NCBI GenBank assembly: GCA_014898425.1
Contig: RCSZ01000012.1
Location: forward strand, 1,426,001-1,490,000
Reading direction: 5' to 3'
Length of the DNA: 64,000 bases
DNA from: Botryotinia globosa
Lineage: Eukaryota > Ascomycota > Leotiomycetes > Helotiales > Sclerotiniaceae
Shown here piece by piece: positions 40,792 to 62,351 of the stretch. The first letter of the stretch is position 1. Each line of letters starts with the position of its first letter. The translations under genes were made by a program, and so were the position numbers. Below the pieces are notes generated by a model. That model saw only the letters and a list, made by a program, of their open reading frames with translations, ran no database searches and was not told where the DNA came from.

Positions 40792-42559
40792 TTAGTTAAC
40801 AGAAATGCCATTCCCATTCCCGTTCCCAGGTCCATTCGTGATAATCTCTCTGGGTTTCCAAGTATCCTCCTGTTTCGTTCCAGGCGGTAGCCAAGAAGCA
40901 TTACTACTACCCCTCAGCCTTCCATTTCTGTCAAATGAATTGTCATCTGATCTCTTGTTATCCGAATTTCCAGACGATAATGAGTATCCACCGCCTCGTG
41001 CTTGGATTGGAGATTCAAAGAGAACTTGGCCTTGAGTGACGGGTGTGAGTCTACCAGAGGTTGTGTTTAGAGGGAGAAGAGATTCTTCTTTAATATTTAA
41101 CATCTTGGCTTTGCGGTCTGCTTTGTTGGAACCCTTGGTCCGGTCGTAGAGGTAGAGACCGAAGAATGTGAGGGCAATTCCCAGACCTTGAATTTTGGTT
41201 GTAGGGTTTTGGAACCAGATTATAGCGATCACAACGACGAAGACACGCTTTATGAGAGAGGCAACAGAATAGGTGACGGGAGAAACCATGCTAAGGAGAA
41301 CGAATGCGATGATGTTTTGACCAAAGTGGAATGTTCCGTTGAAGACAAACTCGAGAGCTAGACGTCCGTGGTCGAAGGCCTCGGGGTGGGAACTCAAATC
41401 AAGAGATCCATCGTGGAAAAAATCACCTAAGAGAGTGATACCTTCTGACCAGAACCAGATAGGTGATGTAACAAGGAAAGCAAGCCCCGACGAGTAGCAG
41501 AGGAGATTGAGCTTATCTAGTTTATTGGTACGCGGTTGACCTGCTGCTTCTGCGATTGCGGCTTCATTGAAGAGCCTTTTAGAGAATATATTTTGGGTGA
41601 CAAATATTATGGCTGCGAGGAAAGCGTAGATTATACCAAATATATTTCCTCTAAATTCTGCGGAGCAGGCGAGCATAACGCCGAGTGTGAGAGGAACGAG
41701 GGAGAGATATGTAGCCACTGGATAACGGATATTATATACAAGTCGATATGCGACCACTGTGAATAAGGGGGAAAGCCCCTTGATTGTGTGAACTAGTGAG
41801 ACCGGAATTTTAGCTGTCGCCGTGGAAGATAGAAGATGGCCCCCGATTTGGAAAGCCGCTAAAGGTAGTGTAGTCATAATGACTTCTCGTGTGGGATATC
41901 GAATTCCATGTCGTAGAGCTGGAATTGCATTTTTGAGTTGTGGAAAAGTCGCGGAAAGCCAGGAGAAAAACAGACAATAGAATGCGACAAATGCAAATTG
42001 TATAAGAGTAAGAGTCGCAGGTTTCGGGAAAGCATTTAGAATCGATTTCGAAGATGTGTTTGTCAAGGCACTTGAGAGATACCATACTATACATAAGACC
42101 TGGACGAATTAAATTAGTCTTCGTCAATATGTGTAGGAGATGTCTACAAACAATTAATTTAGGAGAGACTGGAGCCTTTAGGGCATCCGAAATTTCATGT
42201 ACATTGGCACTCATACTCCCCTTTCTCGATTTAATTGTCTTGAATGCATCACTCAAACTCTTCTGTTTTCTGTGTCCTCTGCCACTATTCGATTCTCCAT
42301 TTGTCCATGAATCCCCTCTCATCCTACCATTTCTTTGCGCCTGCCAACGATCCAGTGGAGGAGGACCACCACCGGGATATCCATTGGGATTTCGTGAGTT
42401 ATAAGAATGTTGGCCATCATATTGATCGAAGGTATCAGAGGTATCGAGATCTGGAAATTTCTCCATGGATGTGCGCGAGCTGGCCTTCGTATCACCAGGA
42501 AATTTGAAGCTCGTTTGTGCAATTCGACCAGGCGAAGGACCTCGAGTCGAATGAGGCAT
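40792..42559 (-). CDS. sly41: triose-phosphate-transporter family protein, SLY41-like
   Basis: Two exons (42559-42152, 42099-40792) give 571 residues. About 130 N-terminal residues are hydrophilic. The membrane part has some nine hydrophobic helices, opening with VLCIVWYLSSALTNTSSKSI across the splice join. It contains the family-typical lysine segment SLVHTIKGLSPLFTVVAYR and the loop FVTQNIFSKRLF. This is the TPT/nucleotide-sugar transporter superfamily; the closest family I recognise is yeast Sly41, an ER/Golgi membrane protein that suppresses loss of Ypt1. The transported solute is not known. The C-terminal 100 residues are Ser/Gly/Asn-rich and cytosolic in style. The intron donor is GTTTGT, weaker than usual. 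Confidence 0.85.
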
Positions 42560-51497: not shown

Positions 51498-52769
51498 ATG
51501 TCAGCTGTTTTTACAACAAAAAGGCCTCACAAGAAGTCGAGGGCCGGATGTCAAACTTGCAAGACAAAAAAGATCAAGGTATATCCAACATTTACCCCAT
51601 TCATGGTTTATGCTCACTGATTATCAACTAAGTGTGATGAAGCTAAACCAAAATGCTCGTTTTGTGAAATCAGAAAGCTTCCCTGTCAATACATACAAAA
51701 GGTCGCCAAGGTGAATGATACGATTAGTCCGACGGAACATAACCTAACTACGTCTTTGGTAAAGTCTGATCCTCATGGTCGACCTGTTCAATCAGCTGAG
51801 CCCTCCTGGGACCTCAGAAACACACCATTCCCGCCATTGCGTACAGCCTCTGGAGTACTCTCCGTGATGGATCTACGTATGGTGCATCATTATTCTACAT
51901 ATACAGGACCAATCGTGGCCCTCGGACCCGCAGCATGTCATGTAATGAAAGTGGTTGTTCCATCTCTTGCCTTTGATAATCCATTCTTATTGAATGGAAT
52001 GTTGGGGCTGGCATCTCTCCACAATCAGTATCTACTTCCACAAATCGAAGATCATAAACGGCAAACAGCTCTCTACCGTGGAAAGGCATTTCGTGATTAT
52101 CGCGCTGCATTAGCGACCGTTACCAAGGACTCGAAGAACTACGAAGCAGTTCTTGTGATGGCATTACTTCTTGTAGTGCTTGCCTCAGGAGACCGAGGTG
52201 AAAATGATGAACTCACAGTAGCAAGCTGGATGGGTTTATACAGCGGACTGCGTATTATCGTTTCGATGAAAACCCCAGATGGAGGTGTAAACAACACTAC
52301 TTCTGTTGGTCCACTGTTCGTCCGAAATCTTAACGATTTACTAGCTACTCCGTTGGTCCCATCTGCCCTATTACATATGCTACATATGGATCCTGACGAT
52401 CAAGATTATGAGAACTTGCAGGCATATTGCGGAACTTTGGATGCTTTAGGCAACCTTTATGCAAGTCTTCGTCAAGATGAACTTAGCGTACCTTTGTTCA
52501 TTCGTATAATCTCGTGGCCATCATTCACGCCCAACGAATTTACAGCTTTAGTAAAGAGCAAACGGCCTAGAGCACTGATTATCTGCGCGTACTACATGTC
52601 CTTTATCAAACTCGTTTCTGGACTTTGGTGGCTCGAGGGCTTAGCAAATCGTGATATTCGCGCCATCACTAATATGCTGGGTCCCAACTGGAACTATATA
52701 CTGGATGTTCCATTGGAAATATTAAACACACAAGACAAACATAAAATCGTCGATATACTACTTCGATGA
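51498..52769 (+). CDS. Zn2Cys6 fungal transcription factor
   Basis: Two exons (51498-51578, 51633-52769) give 405 residues. The intron splits the zinc cluster. After splicing the pattern is Cys-x2-Cys-x6-Cys-x6-Cys-x2-Cys-x6-Cys, a perfect binuclear Zn2Cys6 DNA-binding domain, at residues 18-44. It is preceded by a basic RPHKKSR tail as in Upc2-type regulators. The remainder has the loosely conserved helical region of short fungal regulators (PSLAFDNPFLLNGMLGLASL, AALATVTKDSKNYEAVLVMA). It starts the accessory part of the window and lies 5-7 kb from the RiPP-like genes, so it could regulate them, but nothing in the sequence proves it. Targets are unknown. Confidence 0.88.
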
Positions 52770-54037
52770 CTCCCCCCCCCACACCCTTGACATGGGATGA
52801 AAACATACGACCTTATGGATCCTGAGACGAGTAATGTGCAAGATTGACAGAGCATGGCGACACATGTTCGATGCTTATCGAATGGTTACTCAACCATTTT
52901 TCATATTTAATCCCGCCCCTGAAATCAAACTTGTCTTATGGAGAAGTTGATACATTCTCAAACAAGTTGAGTAATCTTGGAGTATCAAAAATTTCTGTCA
53001 CACCGTGTCAATATCTGTATAACCGCCGAACAACTACGCCTGGATGGGCAAAGTATCCACTAGTTGCAAAAACCTTCGGCCCCAAAACGGGATGCCAACA
53101 CAGATCAGACCTATATTGACACGAGATCTGATTGCAAACGCCTGGTAAAGTCTTTGAAGACATACCAATGCCTACAAGAAAACAGATAAATTCATTGACC
53201 TATGGAAACTTTTTCCCGCGCTCAAAAGTTCGTCGTTCGGGGCACTCTATCGCATGGAGGTACATTGTAGCACTGCAAAAATCGGAATCAACATAGAACT
53301 AGCACAATTTGCTGCGCCTTCCTCAGATCGCGTTTCAATATCCGCGCCACCTACACACATCTACAGTTTGGTGATGGATACTTCTCTCGGCAACGGCTTG
53401 CTCCTGTCAGACTCGCATTAAATTAAACACCTTGAACCATTTCCGTTTGAAATTGGCGCAGGGGATCGGAATAGATCTCCATGCAGGGGTTCAGACATTA
53501 CTTAAGGCTAAGTTACATCAAGACTTCTGATATGATTGGATAACTGGGTCGGATGAAAGTAACCGAGCTTATCAGATGATGTTGTGTCAACCCTAGGGCT
53601 GGGGCCTGGGGATGTTGCTTTTTTCTGTTTTATCAGGGGGGAAATGCAAGCTGAGTATATCCCGAATTCGATTGGTGATAAGGAGCCGAAACTTGGGGTT
53701 GTACTTTCGGGACCAAAACGGAGCGGCTAAGTTGACATGCCAGTTTCGGATGTCAATTGAATGCTAATCCTGGGATATCATGATACCGTGATGGGATGGC
53801 GAACCGTCTTTCTCTAATATGTTGCTCCCAAATTCCAAGGAAGAGGCTTTGTATGATTGTTATATAAACCGATAGCTATCGTTGTTTAAATCGCATTCCT
53901 CATTTCAATTTCGATCTGCTTTCTGTTAAATCCAACCCCAAAAGTTGATTGTTTATTTTTCATCATTTTCTTTCGATCATACAATCAAATACATAATATT
54001 TTGGTCCTATATCGCGAATAGTTAATAGTAATTCACC
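52770..54037. other. intergenic, promoter of cupredoxin gene
   Basis: No supported gene. The frame at 52844-53119 has no motif. A TATATAAA box-like sequence lies at 53861-53868, 170 bases before the next ATG. Confidence 0.5.
53861..53868 (+). promoter_or_regulatory. TATA-box-like element
   Basis: TATATAAA, followed by a pyrimidine-rich leader and the ATG at 54038. Confidence 0.5.
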
Positions 54038-54830
54038 ATGCAATTCAGCAAAATTACTTCTCTCCTCGGAGCTCTCCCCTTCACCTTTGCTGCATACGGA
54101 GCCGCAGATGCCAATTCTGCGTCTATTACGGTGATCCCATCAAGCACCACAAGCACTTCTCCCTCTGACCCAACTCATACTATTCTCGTTGGCGCCGGCG
54201 GCCAACTTACATTTTCTCCCAACGAAACCAAGGCTGACGTAAACACAACCCTCGAGTTCCATTTCTATGCCAAAACGCATTCGGTTGCTCAAGCAGCATT
54301 TGCATCACCCTGTAAGGGCTCAGGTTTCTTCTCTGGTCCGATCGCTACCACTGGCACCGAAGCAAACGCCTCCGTCTTTAGCGTGCTTGTAAATGACACG
54401 AAACCGATCTGGTTCTACTGTGGATATCCCGGACATTGTGAGGGCGGAATGGTAGGAGCCGTTAATGTTAATGCGTAAGTATTTCTTTCCTCTTTCCTAT
54501 ACCTTCTTCTCCATCTAGATACCAAATATCCAATATCTAACGCTAATACAACCCAGAACCGACAACCAAAAAACATTAGCGAAATTCTCACTCGCAGCAA
54601 ACGCACTCGATAGTGATGCCACTACAAACCCAAAAGGTATTGTAGGAGGCACACTCGCTCCATTGAAAGCAGAATCCGGTTCTGGGACAAGTAGCTCCTC
54701 GGGAGCGAGTACTGCGACGGGTACTGCGGCGTCGGCGTCGGCCACTGGCTCAAGTGCGGCGGATGCTACGACTGTGGGATGGATCACGTTTGGGGGCGCG
54801 GTGGTGGTCGCTGGTCTTTTGGGTATGTAA
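54038..54830 (+). CDS. secreted GPI-type cupredoxin-like protein
   Basis: Two exons (54038-54474, 54557-54830) give 236 residues. A signal peptide (about 1-18) leads into a cupredoxin fold. Possible type-1 copper ligands are His81 (KTHSV) and Cys128, His133 and Met138 in FYCGYPGHCEGGM. Asn-x-Thr/Ser glycosylation sites occur near 62, 69 and 110. The C-terminal 90 residues are Ser/Thr/Ala-rich, ending in a short hydrophobic stretch (VGWITFGGAVVVAGLLGM) fitting a GPI-anchor signal. This is the 'extracellular serine-rich protein' group of fungal cupredoxins, thought to sit on the cell surface. Enzymatic activity is not expected from the single copper site. Confidence 0.88.
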
Positions 54831-56072
54831 TGGGCTTGAGATTTGATGAGAAGGAGAACGGAAGAGGCGAGGAAGTTTTTGCATTTGTGTTAGATAAAGT
54901 GTTTATTTGTTAGTTATTGCTGGATATCTGGGCTTTATGTGTTTATGAATGAGGTGTTTGGGGCGTTGATACCTGTCTGTTTTTGGGGTTTCGGGAGTAC
55001 ATTAAAGGAATGAAACAAATGCATTGATTGCAGTTTTGATTTATTTTGATCGCGAGAGCATCTGTTGTTACTTCGAATCAAGCCTGTGAGGTGAGGTGGC
55101 ATAAAATCGTCAGTTTCCAAGGTTATGCGAGAGAAATAGTCGGGGTTGTCGAATTATCATGTCTGTCAATGCAAGTGTACATAATGACTAGATTTAGGAT
55201 TCTGTTCTTCGAAGAGCTTTGGGCTTTTGGGTTGATGCGAACAGTTAGCTCGACTTAATTATTTTGCATTGTTACGAAAGGTTTAGCCGATCTGAGTTTG
55301 TCATATAAGTTTTCGTAGAGCATCATCCAAACTTCCAGGACTAGTTAGGCGACGAAAGCGATGTCGCCGTGCATTCACTGATGGAATTGAGTAGTAGCAA
55401 AAGTATGGTTGGAATTTCGGCTACTTGACCTTGATAATTTGATCAAAATCTTCCATCGTAGCAACACACAACAGAGGACCAAGTATACCGCGGGTCTGTT
55501 GCGAGCTGCCAGCTTTCTCTTGTACAGTTCATTTTGTATTGAGATGTGCTGGGCGGCGTTTGATACGGCCTGTGGCAACAATTGCGCTGCTGTACTGACA
55601 CCCCTTTCTGAGTACATGCCTATTCTTCTAGCTAATTTCCTTAATATATCCCCTAGATCGCTGGAAATGGGCTCCATCGCTTGACAGGATCTTATTGACC
55701 AATTAGATTATCAAGATTCCTTGAATTTAATCCAATATTTATTTTTATTTTTTGATATAAAATTCAATCAATTTTTTTTTAATTTCTAATGTGATAATAA
55801 TATATATTTATTCTTAATCTTTTTTTTTTTGGAATTATAAAAAATCGATATTTGAAATTAAAATTCAATAATATAAAAAATATAACTGAAAAATCATTAA
55901 AATAGTTATTCTATCCAATAAAACTTTATCATTCAAGATATCTCACACAAACCACTTTCGGAGCCCATTTCCAGCGGTCTAGGGGATAATCTTCAATCTT
56001 TACACGCTCTAAGCTACTAGGAAAAAGTAGCATTGCTAATCAGAAAATTGAATCCAACTTACGTTAGCAAGA
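54831..56072. other. accessory intergenic region with inverted repeat and AT-rich core
   Basis: No secure gene. A minus-strand frame at 55375-55677 (MEPISSDLGDILRKLARR at its start) looks coding-like but matches nothing I recognise. Its first codons form one arm of the inverted repeat listed below. Confidence 0.5.
55648..55987. repeat. 28-bp imperfect inverted repeats around an AT-rich core
   Basis: Left arm 55648-55675 and right arm 55960-55987 are reverse complements with one mismatch in 28. The roughly 260 bases between (55690-55945) are almost entirely A and T with T-runs. The arms correspond to the start of the minus-strand frame ending at 55677 and to a matching plus-strand copy (EPISSGLGDN in translation). 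It could be a miniature transposon, or an inverted duplication whose core was mutated by RIP. No clear target-site duplication is seen. Confidence 0.75.
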
Positions 56073-57039
56073 ATGAGCAATCCAACTGATAGCATGGAGT
56101 CGACACCCCATATCAACGAACAATCACAACCCCCAAAGCTCCCAATTTTCAACGAAGCTGATGTCGTTCACCGGCTAGGAACCTGGAATGTTAGATATGA
56201 TTTCACACCCACATGTCCAGGAAAACATCACGGCTTCCATGGGTTTATATGGACTTAGAAGACCATTCAATTGAATGCAAGAGATTGTTTAACCACGAGC
56301 GCATCACCAACGAAGTCAACACTTTGAAACTGGTTTCACAGAACACAACCATTCCAGTTCCACGACTTCTCGATTACAGTGTTAATCCAGATGGTACACG
56401 ATACCTTGTGACGGAACTCATCAATGGCGTTGGCCTCAACAACTTGCATGCGCTAGGCTGCCTAGTAACAGCTGGCGAAAAAAAATACAGAAGAAGCTTC
56501 TTGCGATACGTGTGTGCGTAGAGCATATTCTAACGCCATAAACTTCGTAGAAAATACTGTTTTACCACAACTTTCAACTATGAAATCCCATACAAGAGGT
56601 ATCGACGGCTTCGTTATGCCTCCTGCTTGGTTACCCATCGATACGCAAGAACTATAGAAAGGAAGGAAAGAACCGTGGAAAAGTCTCCCGCTCGCAACTC
56701 CAGAGTACGTATTCCAACATGGAGACTTAGCAGCCCATAATCTTCTCATAGACACGGAACCTCCAGCCTAAAGCTTTGATCGATTGGGAATTCGCTGGTT
56801 ATTATCCCTCCGGAATGCATCTGTGGTCTGGAGCATTGGATTTTCGTACATATGTCCGTTGTGCTAGGGCTGATAATATTGCGAAGTTGATCAGGAAATA
56901 TGTTCCTGAGGACTTTTTGGAGGCTTGTAGTCAATTGGAGGATAGAGAGGATTTTGACTCGTTGGTTAGATCGGGATATTTTCCGGATCCTGAGGAGTTG
57001 AGAGCATCTATGTCAACGTCGGGCATCCAGAAAACCTAA
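56073..57039 (+). pseudogene. broken aminoglycoside-phosphotransferase/kinase-like gene
   Basis: Fragments of an APH-family protein lie in three frames. 56073-56240 holds the N-terminus, and a second frame (56213-56521) holds ERITNEVNTLKLVSQNTTIP and VPRLLDYSVNPDGTRYLVTE. The first frame then returns (about 56515-56765) with YSNAINFVENTVLPQLSTMK and the catalytic-loop motif QHGDLAAHNLLID. A third frame (56773-57039) holds the metal-binding LIDWEFAGYYPSGMH. An in-frame TAG is near 56656 and a TAA follows the catalytic loop. I could not find introns that reconcile these shifts, so I call it a pseudogene. Intact relatives phosphorylate small molecules or proteins of unknown identity in fungi. 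Confidence 0.75.
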
Positions 57040-57429
57040 AGATGAGGTTGATATCTCGCATAGTGGTATTAGTTCATCGGGTTTGGAGATGGAATGTGTT
57101 GTTGGATGGGTGCAGTAGTTAGACAACCTCAAAGCTAATTGACCACGCGAATGCTATATGCGCGCAATGTCCCAGTCTCCCATTTCTCTCTCTTCTGGCG
57201 TCTGTGATGAATGATCAACGCATGACAAAGTAATGAAAAGAAATTACTATTTAATCATGATCCCACTATTTTTGGAGAACTTTAACTTCATTGCCAAGGG
57301 AATAAATGACTATGTTTCTTAGACCTGAATTCGATGCAGATGTAAATAATCCAGCTAAAAGCCTCAAGCTTTCATCCTACAATCGCAAGATATATTTTTG
57401 CCTCTCCAAAGTCTCTTTTCACATCATTC
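57040..57429. other. intergenic
   Basis: A 390-base 3' flank between the broken kinase-like gene and the convergent UstYa-like gene. Nothing is seen in it. Confidence 0.5.
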
Positions 57430-58044
57430 CTACACCCAAGCCAATCTCTTACACCTATGAAAACCCATCACAACATCATTCGTCGAATTATTAGTTTCCC
57501 CTCCATAATGATCCAAAACCTCCGAACAATGATCCGAATGTTCCAAATCCAAACTCTTGTCGTCCAAATAATCTGCTCTCCTCGCAATGCCCAATGCCAA
57601 TTTCCTCCAGAGAAAAAAACAATGCGTCGAATGATACTTGTGCGTAAAAGCGTGTTTGTTCTTTCCAGCCCACAGGTCTGCAGGCGGTATTTGCACCGTG
57701 AAGGTGTCGTCTGTATACCACTCTCTGTCTTCAAACGGAGAATACTGAGAGCTGAGATCGGCGAAGTAACATTCACGTGGTATCCAGCCGTAGATCATCG
57801 GTTCCATGACACAGTTTTTGGAGAGCGCTTCTTCGACTGAGGAGCCGCAGTCGATGTATTGAGGTAGATGGGGGTGTTTGTGAGACCATACCCAGAAGGT
57901 ACCGGTGATGATTGATGCTAGAACAGTTGCACACAGGACACCTTGAATAATCCTTCTGGTAGTTGAGGTGGTCCTTCTTGTCTCCGACGGACTGGAACCT
58001 TCTTCAAGTGGGAGCTGATCATATCGCACACTTTTAGAGTCCAT
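57430..58044 (-). CDS. UstYa-like (DUF3328-type) membrane oxidase, short form
   Basis: Intronless, 204 residues from the ATG at 58044; the frame is open further upstream, but that part is not family-like. One membrane helix lies at about 32-53 (IIQGVLCATVLASIITGTFW) after a short cytosolic tail. The lumenal part has CGSSVEEALSKNCVMEPMIY and WIPRECYFADLSSQ. It carries two HxxHC motifs, HSTHC (138-142) and HSDHC (169-173), the signature of UstYa-type proteins. Known UstYa-family members act in the secretory pathway on ribosomal peptides (ustiloxin, phomopsin, cyclochlorotine), making Tyr-linked rings or other oxidations. This protein belongs to a divergent subgroup often annotated as hypothetical. 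It is divergently transcribed from the precursor gene, across 520 bases. Confidence 0.82.
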   Translation of the reverse strand: MDSKSVRYDQLPLEEGSSPSETRRTTSTTRRIIQGVLCATVLASIITGTFWVWSHKHPHLPQYIDCGSSVEEALSKNCVMEPMIYGWIPRECYFADLSSQYSPFEDREWYTDDTFTVQIPPADLWAGKNKHAFTHKYHSTHCFFLWRKLALGIARRADYLDDKSLDLEHSDHCSEVLDHYGGETNNSTNDVVMGFHRCKRLAWV

Positions 58045-58564
58045 ATTTGCTGTTTGCTCCTTCGGCTGTTCCACGACCAGAAGATGTATATTTTCAGAGA
58101 TCTTCGAGGTAGAAAATTGACGAGACAAAGTTGTGTGAACAGGAGACTGCGATTCTCCCGTCTTTCCCGAGAAGTTCTTGGCAATCTGACGTCGATTGCT
58201 ACAGAAAGATATCAATGGCCAGCAAGAATGGGAAGATAATGCAGCCAATGTTAGACTCTCGAACTTCATTGGGAGGTTCGTGCAGAAATCTTACTCCTGC
58301 ATGATGCACAAGCGTTATGTTGACAAACTATATCTGGGAATTGAATCCTTTGAATATGCACCTGCAACTACACCCTAGAACATATCTCACCTCCACGGAT
58401 TAGGAAGGAGGTCAAAAGTACTTCAGAATCCTTAGGTAATATTGTATTGAAGATCGTGTTATATATAGTTTCGAAACTCTCCTAAAATGTAGGAATTCAG
58501 GCCTTCTATAACCGTTACCCTCACTTCATCTTTCACTCAAGCATCACCAAAACAACCCGTCATC
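58045..58564. promoter_or_regulatory. shared divergent promoter, UstYa-like gene and RiPP precursor
   Basis: A 520-base region between divergent start codons. A TTATATATAG TATA-like element at about 58459-58468 lies 100 bases before the precursor ATG. Co-regulation of the two genes is inferred from the arrangement. Confidence 0.55.
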
Positions 58565-58866
58565 ATGAAGGTCACATATGTATTGACAGCCTTGAGCTTG
58601 CTCGGCGTAGCAATTGCTCTCCCTACTCCAGTTGGTATGTAGTTCATTTTAACTCTATTGATAGATAATTCATGCTAACATCGATGACAGATACGACAGA
58701 GGCCAAAAGGGATGCAGCACCAGCAGAAGAAGCTACCAACTACTTTTATGCTGTTCAGAAGAAGGATGCTGTACCCGAAGAAGCTTCCAATATTTTCTAT
58801 GCTGTTCAGAAGAAGGATGCTGAGCCAGAAGAAGCCGCAACCAACTGGTTCTACGCTGTACAATAG
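58565..58866 (+). CDS. putative dikaritin-type RiPP precursor peptide with three core repeats
   Basis: Two exons (58565-58634, 58691-58866) give 81 residues. A signal peptide (about 1-18, ending in GVAIA) is followed by a short leader and a Lys-Arg site at 29-30. Three repeats of 16-18 residues follow, of the form DAxPxEEAxxNxFYAVQ. Lys-Lys pairs (47-48 and 64-65) separate the repeats, and the third ends exactly at the stop. The segment before FYAVQ varies: NY, NI, NW. This matches the plan of fungal ustiloxin/phomopsin/epichloecyclin-type precursors, in which Kex2-like proteases cut at dibasic sites and UstYa proteins modify the Tyr-containing core. I do not recognise these cores as any known product. 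UstYa-like genes on both sides support the call. Confidence 0.88.
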
Positions 58867-59695
58867 AAGAAGCTTGGCTCCGAGAAAAGAAGCCGGGGGT
58901 GTGTTTTTGCCATGAAAGGCGGGGTCTCAAGGATTGTCTTTGATGAATTTATGTCTAAATGAAGAAAGAATATAATGTAACTGAATAACCTTCATGCACG
59001 CTTGCCCCTTGCCAAATTACCTTGTAACCCTGTCACTGAACCAATCATTTTGTCGCCTTGCAGAAAATCTTCAATGGTGAGATATCGCTTTCGTATATCG
59101 TATATAGTTACTGTACTTATCGTAAAACTTGATTATACCCGAGGAGCCGTCAATATCAATAGATAGACCCATATTATATCCGCAAATTCCACGAGTTGAG
59201 GTGTCATGCGGGGCTCGCTTCTGTCTTGACTAAAAGGGGAAGGAGGCATCAGCCTTGGCGATCCTTCAACCCACAATATGCATGCACGATCCAAAGCCAC
59301 CGAAAGCTTGTGCGTGTAAATCAACGTATCTTTCTTCATTCAGAACCCATTGGTACAGAATATGAGTATGCCGATCTTTCGTGTTCTTATCAAGAGTGGT
59401 ATTCTGGAAGTATGTACTTGAAGATCAAATCATCTTAGTGCTTACGATGGGTCGGTCGGGGACCTAATTGCTAACTACGGGCTCGTCATGCTAGAAATGG
59501 AAGGTAGATAGTGATATTTCTTGGAATCGTTGAGGGGGGAGAGGGGTGGCGGTTTGGTGACGGACTTTCGGTATTCGGTGCTTCAGATGGCTGTTTGCGA
59601 AATCTTCAACGACTTCCCAGTTTAACAAGACGGAGAAGCAGTACTACCTACATTCATACTCACGCTTCAATATTTGAGTTGAATCAAGGGAAAAC
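58867..59695. other. intergenic between precursor and second UstYa-like gene
   Basis: An 829-base region with no supported gene. Frames at 59133-59438 and 59511-59786 carry no motif and no HxxHC sequence. Confidence 0.5.
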
Positions 59696-60797
59696 ATGGG
59701 ACATTCTGATGAGTCAAGTGTACCATTCCTTACTGATTTGGAAAATGAATACACTGCGACTGGGAAATCTCATAGATCAACACTAGACAATCCTAGAGCC
59801 ACGAAATGCTCAAAAAAGCAGACTTGTCTTTGGATATCATGTATAGTTGTCATTACACTGCTCACGAACACCGCAACATATCTCACCACACATCAACCCC
59901 CCCGAAATCTGGACCAAGTATGTGCTAAACATACAAGTCAAACTTGGAGTTAGTTACCAAGACTTTATCTCTGAAAAAAATGGCAAATGAGCTGACTGTC
60001 GCAGGTCCCATACTCGATAACATTGACATTGAATACGAAACTGTTAGATTCAATGGCTCACTGTTCACCAACACAATATACAGAGAAGAACCTAGCCCGG
60101 AAGTTGATGAAGCATGGTTCAATCTTGGAACAAAATGTATGTTAGCAGTCTCTATCTCAAGCAGGATAAATTCTGATGCTGACACACATGAACAGATAAG
60201 GCAATAATTATTCCACCAGAAGATGCTCCCAAAGCCGGAATATCACTTGATCATTTCCGAGTAGATGAGAAAGATGGAGGTCCTGGGTATCCTGCTATAG
60301 TTGAGGTGATGCATCAATTGCATTGTCTGGTAAGACTTCCATTTCCAGACAGCACTTGCTTGCAAAGTTGGAGATCATAAACGGAAGCTGACAATACGTA
60401 GAATCTTCTCCGACAAGGGCTCTATTACAACTCTGAGTACTACCACAATCTCGGAGAAGGGCCATTCAAGAATGATGAATTCATCTTGAAAGCACATATA
60501 AGTATGTATATTAGTACTATTGCGTATACCCAATTACTAACAACCACAATAGATCACTGTCTAGATACCGTCCGCCAAAGTTTAATGTGTTCAGCCGACA
60601 CAGGAGCACACCCTTTCTTGTGGGCAAAGTCTGGAGATCGTGTTCACTTATATCCGGACTTCAACCGTGATCACAAATGTAAGAATTTTGATGATATAAG
60701 GCAGTTCGCAGAGAAACATCAGGCACCATGGCGTGAAGATGGCCAATTGAATGTGCAGCCAAAGGACGGAGAAGTTATTTTACCAGCAATTCCATGA
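59696..60797 (+). CDS. UstYa-family (DUF3328) oxidase
   Basis: Five exons (59696-59948, 60005-60136, 60196-60329, 60402-60501, 60553-60797) join in frame to 287 residues. A cytosolic tail precedes one membrane helix at about 44-62 (CLWISCIVVITLLTNTATYL). The lumenal domain has SPEVDEAW, then HQLHCLNLLRQ (HxxHC at 168-172) and HINHCLDTVRQSLMCSAD (HxxHC at 205-209), both diagnostic for the family. The second motif reads HINHC where Asp is usual at the third position. Members install oxidative crosslinks on RiPP cores, some as paired UstYa/UstYb enzymes. Its position 0.8 kb downstream of the precursor, with another UstYa-like gene on the other side, points to one pathway. Confidence 0.92.
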
Positions 60798-61105: not shown

Positions 61106-61579
61106 TTACGCCTTATCCAGATCCTTGACTTCAAACCAGGCTCCTAAAATAGCCATCCCCATAAAAAATGGAAAGATGATCATCTGCGGAGCCGAATCCC
61201 CAAATTCTGGATCCATTGCCTTACTTCCCGGGTATAATATCGCAGACAACCCCGCGATCCAATACAAACTCCCCGCGATCGCAGCTGTGATCATACTATC
61301 CCGAGTCATCTTTCGCACCCACACTGACTCTGATGATTCTGGCGTCTGTTTCTTCTCTGCCTTCGATTTGGACTTCGGAGTTGGGATACGTGGGAAGCGC
61401 CAGGTATAGTATAAAGTAACGAGACCAAGTAGGGCGCCTAAAGACATGGTTTGTCCATTGTGGAATTTGGCATGAGGAGGCCAGCGGGGATTGTAAATGT
61501 GGGTGTGATTCCAATCTGCGATGAAGGGTGTAACGCCTTGGCCGAAAGCAGAGAGGGTGAGAAGGATACGACCGCGCAT
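61106..61579 (-). CDS. small four-helix membrane protein, unknown function
   Basis: Intronless, 157 residues, with four hydrophobic segments at about 5-22, 46-60, 95-116 and 133-151. A conserved-looking loop (FIADWNHTHIYNPRWPPHAK) follows the first helix, and a Lys/Ser/Glu-rich hydrophilic linker lies at 66-85. I recall a fungal family with this N-terminal WPPHAKFH motif (perhaps DUF6640) but cannot verify the number, and no function is assigned. It lies downstream of the UstYa gene in convergent orientation, so it may be an accessory member of the RiPP cluster or an unrelated neighbour. Confidence 0.75.
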   Translation of the reverse strand: MRGRILLTLSAFGQGVTPFIADWNHTHIYNPRWPPHAKFHNGQTMSLGALLGLVTLYYTWRFPRIPTPKSKSKAEKKQTPESSESVWVRKMTRDSMITAAIAGSLYWIAGLSAILYPGSKAMDPEFGDSAPQMIIFPFFMGMAILGAWFEVKDLDKA

Positions 61580-62351
61580 TATGTTATGGGGTATTTAGAG
61601 CTGCTGATTTGATGATTTTTAGTATGTAAATGAGAGTTTGTTTGATGGATTGGAAGAAGTGATTGTTGGTTGATGATTGTACAAATCTTTACGATCAACT
61701 CAACGTGTCTGGATGACGTGAAGCATGAGAGGTGAAGTGATATATAAGTTCCACTATGCTTAAGGTTTGGGCTAGGAGATCGACAGCTCTCGGGCCAGCA
61801 AACAAACGCAATCCCGCATTGCAAGAGCTTGAGGTTTCAGCTCAGCTCAGCTCAGCTCAGCTCGCTGTTCGGAGGAGAAAAAACAGACCGAATTCGACCA
61901 CCTCAACATAAACAATCAAGATGCTTTGACGAATGAATTACGAACAAAGTAGGTAGCTCGATTCAAAAGTATCAAGTAGAACTCCAGGGTTTAATCATCC
62001 AAATGATTACCTAAGGTTACCTAGGTACTTATATAAATATCTTCGAAAGGAAGTTGGTCATGTAACAGCGGTGAGACATGGCATAATTCTCCAGCCTCAA
62101 GTTGCTAGACGGGGTTGTCTATCAGATGTGGTGTTGTTCATCGTCACTTTACTAGGAGCTCCAGCTATCTCAAAGAAGCGCGTTCTGCAAGCTCCATATC
62201 AAATGGTCAAGGTATGCTTGTAGATTTCAATGTGATGGAATTGAGATAGTCACGTGTCAGTACGTAAATACCATGCTAGGATATTTTATTCCAAAACTTG
62301 AGGAGACAAGGTTACCCTCAATACACTCTTGTGCAAAATACTCCAGCCAAC
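61580..62351. promoter_or_regulatory. divergent promoter region
   Basis: A 772-base region between divergent genes. It has an (AGCTC)n pentanucleotide at 61839-61863 and CCTAGGTA-type motifs near 61950 and 62012-62026. No gene is supported. Confidence 0.45.
61839..61863. repeat. (AGCTC)n pentanucleotide repeat
   Basis: About five perfect AGCTC copies in the promoter of the membrane-protein gene. Confidence 0.9.

What the first reader, a model, noticed from the sequence alone, without database searches (positions are those of the whole stretch)
57430..60797. Candidate new dikaritin/UstYa-type RiPP gene cluster
A secreted precursor with three FYAVQ-ending repeats and dibasic sites sits between two UstYa-like genes, both with two HxxHC motifs. 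Seen directly: repeats, KR/KK sites, signal peptide, membrane helix plus HxxHC pairs. Known: ustiloxin, phomopsin and epichloecyclin loci have this logic. Inferred: the locus makes cyclic or crosslinked peptides from three related cores. I do not know any described product with an xFYAVQ core. The cluster lacks an obvious peptidase or methyltransferase within the visible part.
Basis: partly seen in the sequence, partly recalled or inferred. Interest (0 to 1): 0.93.

Follow-up and report, generated by a model that had tools for sequence, protein, structure and literature searches.

The report
Fungal peptide cluster with two oxidases
A grey-mould relative carries a compact three-gene set that most likely cuts a secreted repeat protein into short peptides and cross-links them, a known way for fungi to make bioactive peptides, here with a core sequence we could not find described and an oxidase-like partner that the standard family model misses.

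Summary
The window is from Botryotinia globosa. Three adjacent genes: a minus-strand membrane protein with two HxxHC motifs (57430-58044), an 81-residue secreted precursor with three dibasic-flanked repeats ending in FYAVQ (58565-58866, one intron), and a five-exon UstYa oxidase (59696-60797; Pfam UstYa, 202.7 bits for a draft model). The first protein has no Pfam hit and only weak profile similarity to UstYa. The repeats are conserved in B. convoluta and B. calthae (five copies each); over 13 repeats N, Y, V and Q of the core are invariant. Best reading: a minimal dikaritin-type RiPP locus, Kex2-cut, core ending Y-(A/V)-V-Q, parallel to ustiloxin's Y-A-I-G, cross-linked by UstYa with the HxxHC partner. 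No tyrosinase, S41 peptidase or methyltransferase turned up in the parts examined. Such loci are common in fungi, so this is a new member of a known kind. Less expected is the Pfam-blind HxxHC family: 5 of 7 genome members (one a weak hit) lie within 3 kb of a UstYa hit. Product, cross-link and expression are untested.

The parts
57430..58044 (-). HxxHC protein 1 (204 aa, intronless): N-terminus, one hydrophobic helix, a conserved Cys-rich region (CG..EEA..C, YGW.P.EC, W-Y-T), then HSTHC and HSDHC. Proposed second, divergent UstYa-like oxidase or partner of the right-hand UstYa enzyme
   Evidence: ORF; 13 homologues of 44 candidates, from Botrytis, Sclerotinia, Monilinia, Hyaloscypha and metagenomes; six motif residues invariant in 12 of 12 rows (own protein plus 11 of the 13 relatives; P0005 and P0013 dropped); no Pfam hit; best model mean pLDDT 75.5, both motifs on helices
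58045..58564 (.). 520-bp region between the divergent starts of HxxHC protein 1 and the precursor, possibly a shared promoter (inferred)
   Evidence: from the gene ends; no expression data
58565..58866 (+). precursor peptide gene, 81 aa; exons 58565-58634 and 58691-58866
   Evidence: identical to P0015 (EAF00_008833), related to P0014 and P0016
58711..58758 (+). repeat 1 DAAPAEEATNYFYAVQ (KR before, KK after)
58765..58809 (+). repeat 2 DAVPEEASNIFYAVQ (KK after)
58816..58863 (+). repeat 3 DAEPEEAATNWFYAVQ, directly followed by the stop codon, so Q is the encoded C-terminus of this repeat
59696..60797 (+). UstYa-family oxidase, 287 aa, five exons (59696-59948, 60005-60136, 60196-60329, 60402-60501, 60553-60797), motifs HQLHC and HINHC
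   Evidence: PF11807 E 9.1e-60, 202.7 bits on a draft model; final splice model follows the exon joins of the annotated B. fragariae orthologue P0017; 97 homologues of 270 candidates, searched with the draft

Best explanation
The locus is a minimal Kex2-processed-repeat / UstYa RiPP cluster. The precursor enters the secretory path by its signal peptide (inferred from sequence). The Kex2-type protease cuts after KR/KK and a carboxypeptidase trims the basic residues, leaving three peptides that all end in N-x-F-Y-A-V-Q (sites shown, cutting inferred). In the secretory lumen the UstYa enzyme, by family a binuclear copper oxidase, links the invariant Tyr to a side chain in the same core, most likely the beta-carbon of the Val two residues on, as ustiloxin and phomopsin link Tyr to Ile. 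The left HxxHC protein most likely takes part in the same oxidation, as second oxidase or partner subunit (inferred from motif, membrane helix, linkage and conservation). An unknown peptidase trims the DAxPEEA(T/S) spacer. The product is a small family of secreted cyclic peptides, at most three congeners from this precursor, role unknown.
For: UstYa domain in the right gene (draft model). Precursor with signal-like N-terminus, repeats and dibasic sites. Precursors with five repeats in B. convoluta and B. calthae; in 13 of 13 repeats Q(-1), V(-2), Y(-4), N(-7) and E(-11) are invariant while -5 and -6 vary. Only synonymous differences among the three FYAVQ blocks. HxxHC protein 1 family: both motifs in 6 of 6 paralogues, in two of them over two ORFs; 5 of 7 genome members within 3 kb of a PF11807 hit, against 0.36% of the genome. 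A Kex2-type P-domain locus exists on C3. Two further repeat arrays in the loci at hand, on C14 and C1, also lie between UstYa hits. Family chemistry: PMC12435403 (part 1 of 3 read); PMC6514808 and PMC9233826 (passages); PMC7329392 (passages, section 6 part 1 of 2, section 7).
Against: No tyrosinase near: the nearest PF00264 hit on this contig is over 1 Mb away, while ustiloxin and phomopsin need one; asperipin-2a has none listed. The only S41 peptidase hit (25.5 bits, just over cut-off) is on another contig. No methyltransferase or reductase and, apart from a triose-phosphate-type transporter at 40795-42108, no transporter among the ORFs scanned (23 of 143 window ORFs of 90 aa or more, 7 of 21 ORFs of 110 aa or more in the 20 kb to the right); most ORFs were not scanned. 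HxxHC protein 1 lacks a Pfam hit and profile comparison with UstYa gave only 31% and 16% probability. One of the five linked family members (C17) is a weak hit, E 0.023. Internal sites are KK, not KR. No expression or mass data. The precursor search returned no Sclerotinia or B. cinerea protein, although enzyme homologues exist there; small ORFs may be unannotated.
Confidence: 0.78

Rival explanations
1. The precursor is cut by Kex2 into linear, unmodified secreted peptides (pheromone- or signal-like), and the neighbouring UstYa-type genes act on something else.
For: Most fungal Kex2-processed repeat proteins have no DUF3328 gene nearby (6120 of 7878, PMC7329392), and alpha-pheromones are processed this way. 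A sub-threshold Pfam match to the mating-factor N-terminus appears (E 0.12).
Against: HxxHC genes lie directly on either side; precursor and left enzyme stay neighbours in B. calthae; Tyr invariant in 13 of 13 repeats, as expected for a cross-link donor. In PMC7329392 almost all pheromone precursors lack a DUF3328 neighbour (abstract passage). No W-C-x-x-G-Q-type pheromone core (recalled pattern).
Confidence: 0.13
2. The locus is a shrinking or decaying remnant: fewer repeats than in two relatives, a mobile element and broken-looking ORFs in the flank, and no product made.
For: Five repeats in B. convoluta and B. calthae, three here. The B. cinerea protein P0005 does not align in its middle and P0013 of Monilinia fructigena is cut short, either decay or annotation error. 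A repeated element of about 340 bp lies 1.4 kb away.
Against: All three genes are open, with canonical introns where they have them; enzymes 90% and 89% identical to B. fragariae proteins; synonymous-only change in FYAVQ.
Confidence: 0.07
3. HxxHC protein 1 is not part of the UstYa chemistry and is only a neighbour (compatible with the main reading otherwise).
For: No Pfam hit; weak profile scores; two paralogues, on C3 and C5, have no PF11807 hit on their contig.
Against: Both HxxHC motifs in register; same strand, helix with HxxHC, helix with HxxHC, strand, strand order in its model and in the model of the B. fragariae UstYa orthologue P0017; 5 of 7 members near UstYa hits. Tandem duplication of remote relatives could also give this linkage.
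Confidence: 0.2

Closest known systems
Ustiloxin B cluster (Aspergillus flavus, Ustilaginoidea virens)
   Same: Repeats with dibasic sites, two HxxHC enzymes near the precursor, core Y-A-I-G against Y-A-V-Q here (ustiloxin data from PMC6514808 passages)
   Different: Ustiloxin: 16 peptides from KR-flanked repeats, tyrosinase UstQ, methyltransferase UstM, P450, flavin monooxygenases, UstD; none found here in the parts scanned. Val-Gln instead of Ile-Gly. One of the two HxxHC proteins here is outside PF11807
Asperipin-2a cluster (aprA, aprY, aprT, aprR)
   Same: Small cluster without tyrosinase; FY within the core
   Different: One UstYa-type enzyme, a reductase and a transporter; core FYYTGY, bicyclic
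Epichloecyclins (gigA)
   Same: Few imperfect repeats, Kex2 sites, Tyr-type side-chain ring, cores of seven to nine residues (passages)
   Different: N-terminal Ile and internal Tyr; GigA sequence was not compared here
Fungal Kex2-processed repeat proteins (KEPs), PMC7329392
   Same: Defining anatomy met; 1758 of 7878 have a DUF3328 gene nearby. Type G-5/P-1 (Tyr-containing; 16 of 35 with DUF3328; Botryotinia, Botrytis, Sclerotinia among its genera) might include this precursor
   Different: Whether this precursor is in their Table S2, and in which type, could not be read
CctR, cyclochlorotine hydroxylase (DUF3328), PMC12435403
   Same: Membrane helix plus paired HxxHC, the basis for the copper mechanism
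   Different: Acts on a non-ribosomal peptide; homodimer, while a hetero-pair is one option here

Membership tests
Dikaritin / UstYa-type fungal RiPP | DUF3328 (UstYa) protein with double HxxHC as class-defining enzyme (definition as reported in PMC12048977, passages) | tested here: met
   right gene: PF11807 202.7 bits on a draft model, HQLHC and HINHC in the final model
Dikaritin / UstYa-type fungal RiPP | precursor with signal peptide, repeated cores and Kex2 sites | tested here: met
   signal peptide judged from hydropathy and position only
Dikaritin / UstYa-type fungal RiPP | multiple DUF3328 proteins (older five-gene definition) | tested here: inconclusive
   the second HxxHC protein has the motifs but no PF11807 hit
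Dikaritin / UstYa-type fungal RiPP | tyrosinase in the cluster (older definition) | tested here: not met
   no PF00264 hit within 1 Mb on the contig; not listed for asperipin-2a either
Dikaritin / UstYa-type fungal RiPP | methyltransferase; peptidase or transporter (older definition) | tested here: inconclusive
   S41: only one hit, on C4. No methyltransferase among the 30 ORFs scanned; one triose-phosphate-type transporter about 15 kb away; most ORFs not scanned
Dikaritin / UstYa-type fungal RiPP | side-chain macrocycle in the product | not testable with these tools
   needs LC-MS and NMR
PF11807 (UstYa) for HxxHC protein 1 | score above the curated cut-off | tested here: not met
   0 families at E up to 1; best of 14 family members E 0.01
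alpha-pheromone precursor | MF_alpha-type domain above cut-off | tested here: not met
   only a sub-cut-off MF_alpha_N match, 12.8 against 22 bits

The most novel reading that the evidence does not exclude
HxxHC protein 1 belongs to a second, Pfam-blind family of copper-type peptide oxidases or subunits that works as a hetero-pair with a classical UstYa enzyme, perhaps with a joint HxxHC helix-bundle copper site, and this pair cross-links a Y-(A/V)-V-Q core without any tyrosinase. Mining that relies on PF11807 would then miss half of such enzyme pairs in fungi.
Probability: 0.3. Interest if true: 0.65.

Novelty: new member of a known kind. Interest (0 to 1): 0.45.

Why it matters
It gives a compact system (three genes, one core motif, 13 natural repeats in three species) in which to test how UstYa enzymes choose the residues they link and whether a tyrosinase is dispensable. 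It also points to an HxxHC family that the Pfam model does not see and that lies near UstYa genes in this genome, which would change how fungal peptide clusters are mined if the pairing holds elsewhere. For Botrytis biology it adds a candidate secreted cyclic peptide of unknown role.

Tried and rejected
Pheromone precursor: only a sub-threshold match. Further copies of the precursor in the genome: besides itself two weak neighbouring hits on C3 (E 0.028 and 6.3), not followed; the codon pattern for YAVQ-K-(K/R)-D-A occurs twice in the genome, both inside this gene. Structure look-ups: neither model matches a PDB chain at E 0.001 or better; no solved relative by sequence for the draft UstYa protein at E up to 1. 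The UstYa model is of the B. fragariae orthologue P0017, not of the window protein. The HxxHC protein 1 model is moderate (12 sequences; five models from 75.5 down to 45.2), so only helix order is used. Homology of HxxHC protein 1 to UstYa by profiles is weak and not claimed as shown. Repeat-array scan of the window and 42 loci: besides this precursor and the arrays on C14 and C1 it returned two long low-complexity ORFs (L032 and window 46569 on), taken as false positives; a stricter scan of 14 of the loci returned only the C14 array. Larger cluster: the 7 right-hand ORFs scanned have no Pfam hit. Literature: nine searches, seen as listings unless a paper is named as read: UstYa/DUF3328/RiPP, Botrytis with RiPP or UstYa, Botrytis clusters, Botrytis dikaritin, copper, UstYa-UstYb-ustiloxin, HxxHC and heterodimer, core strings and species name, Kex2-processed with Botrytis or Sclerotinia; none showed me a description of this precursor. 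PMC6941272 (passages) reports four adjacent DUF3328 pairs in S. sclerotiorum; whether one is orthologous was not tested.
Full report
Identity of the window. The window is C12:1426001-1490000 of an assembly of 45.68 Mb in 27 contigs. The precursor is 100% identical to EAF00_008833 of Botryotinia globosa, whose longest contig has 2,228,965 bases, the length of C12. So this is B. globosa, a fungus of the Botrytis group.

The observation. All three genes are there. The precursor has one intron with canonical borders and encodes 81 residues; after the signal-like segment come KR and three repeats of 15-16 residues separated by KK, the last ending at the stop codon. The repeats exceed chance (55 against at most 19 in 2000 shuffles), and the three FYAVQ blocks differ only at synonymous sites. 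The right gene has five exons; its junctions follow the annotated B. fragariae orthologue P0017, and a draft of the protein scores 202.7 bits against PF11807, cut-off 25. The left gene is intronless and has both motifs, HSTHC and HSDHC, but no Pfam match.

Conservation. A search of 5.8 billion proteins with the precursor gave 3 proteins among 7 candidates at E up to 1: B. convoluta (82%), B. globosa itself and B. calthae (80%). The two relatives have five repeats each. Counting 3 + 5 + 5 = 13 repeats, Q, V, Y, N and one E are invariant; the residue before Y is F in 10, V in 2 and I in 1; the one before that is I in 6, Y in 3, W in 2, F in 2; the residue after Y is A in 12 and V in 1. A variable pair before a fixed Y-(A/V)-V-Q looks like a core with a fixed reactive part. 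Ustiloxin has Y-A-I-G (PMC6514808 passages); the variant Y-V-I-G and the phomopsin core sequence are recalled, not from a call. The left protein found 13 of 44 candidates, the right one (draft) 97 of 270. Both families have members in Botrytis and in Sclerotinia, the Sclerotinia ones from different species. Locus tags in B. calthae put precursor and left gene next to each other; equal contig lengths suggest that both enzyme genes share a contig in B. fragariae and in one metagenome source.

The left protein. In 12 of 12 rows (own protein and 11 of 13 relatives; P0005 and P0013 were dropped, one not alignable in its middle, one cut short) all six motif residues are invariant. Six further members in the genome all carry both motifs, in two of them spread over two ORFs. 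Of the seven genome members, five lie within 3 kb of a PF11807 hit (37 hits, merged by hand to 31 intervals); 0.36% of the genome is that close, naive binomial P about 1e-11, or 2e-9 counted as 4 of 6 loci. One of the five (C17) is a weak hit, E 0.023; the other four are at E 3e-9 or better. The two members on C3 and C5 have no PF11807 hit on their contig. Tandem duplication of remote relatives would also cluster the families, so linkage is not proof of joint function. Profile comparison puts the motifs in register but with low probability (31%, E 5e-4; 16%, E 0.0016, with four paralogues added). Predicted structures, of the left protein and of P0017 in place of the right one, show the same order around the motifs: strand, helix with HxxHC, helix with HxxHC, two strands; there is no PDB match for either.

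Surroundings. Of 20 larger window ORFs scanned, 7 had no Pfam family; the others include ORC5, DUF382/PSP, a triose-phosphate-type transporter, GAPDH, a V/A-type ATPase, a histone deacetylase, a Fungal_trans_2 regulator at 51621-52766, a cupredoxin-like ORF at 54032-54475 below cut-off and a DUF6640 protein at 61109-61594. Three small window ORFs and 7 ORFs in the 20 kb to the right gave nothing. These are 23 of 143 window ORFs and 7 of 21 right-hand ORFs above the length limits. Tyrosinase and S41 peptidase hits are not near. A Kex2-type P domain is on C3.

Mechanism. Shown: anatomy, conservation, UstYa domain, motifs, linkage. Established for the family: the DUF3328 enzyme CctR is membrane-bound and copper-dependent, with a binuclear site formed by the paired HxxHC motif (PMC12435403, first of three parts read), and UstYa-type enzymes are needed for the Tyr ether rings of ustiloxin, asperipin and phomopsin (PMC7329392, PMC6514808). 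Inferred: Kex2 cutting at KK, the N-terminal core boundary, the Tyr-to-Val ether, the role of the left protein, secretion of the product.

Position among known things. Kex2-processed repeat proteins with a DUF3328 gene nearby number 1758 of 7878 in one survey (PMC7329392), so another is not surprising, and one of that survey's types may contain this precursor. In this genome two more repeat arrays turned up between UstYa hits in the loci at hand (C14 near 964.5 kb, C1 near 1.443 Mb). Under the present definition (DUF3328 as class enzyme, as reported in PMC12048977) the locus is a dikaritin-type cluster; under the older five-gene definition it is not, for want of a tyrosinase.

Verdict. A real, conserved fungal RiPP candidate of a common kind. 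The extra interest lies in the unclassified HxxHC partner.

Noticed in passing
55647-55988: MITE-like element of about 340 bp with 29-nt terminal inverted repeats (97% complementary) and an AT-rich inside; 40 further copies in the genome (39 near full length at 82-87% identity, one partial at 74%), a lower bound because only 40 of 97 candidates were scored.
   Followed up: partly
56090-57040: Several short ORF pieces that look like a broken gene (kinase-like to the eye, recalled motif); two of them gave no Pfam hit. Described only.
   Followed up: no
G000 C14 about 964470-964880 (L019, L026): Another repeat precursor with many GMEDATPYKR units between two UstYa hits; a tyrosinase hit at C14:952010-952474 lies about 11 kb from the nearer UstYa hit.
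   Followed up: partly
G000 C1 about 1442944-1443130 (L029): Third repeat array, three units like EETITDGTLIAEGW with two KR sites, no Tyr, between UstYa hits; found by the looser scan only.
   Followed up: no
P0005 (Botrytis cinerea H4I96_09497): The relative of the left protein does not align in its middle and lacks both HxxHC motifs, as if out of frame; gene decay or annotation error. Described only.
   Followed up: no
51621-52766 and 54032-54475: A Fungal_trans_2 regulator (Zn-cluster match below cut-off) and a cupredoxin-like ORF (below cut-off) within about 6 kb of the copper-type oxidase genes; membership in the cluster unknown.
   Followed up: no
G000 C8 2477802-2483535: Block of alternating UstYa hits (three) and HxxHC protein 1-type hits (two).
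   Followed up: no
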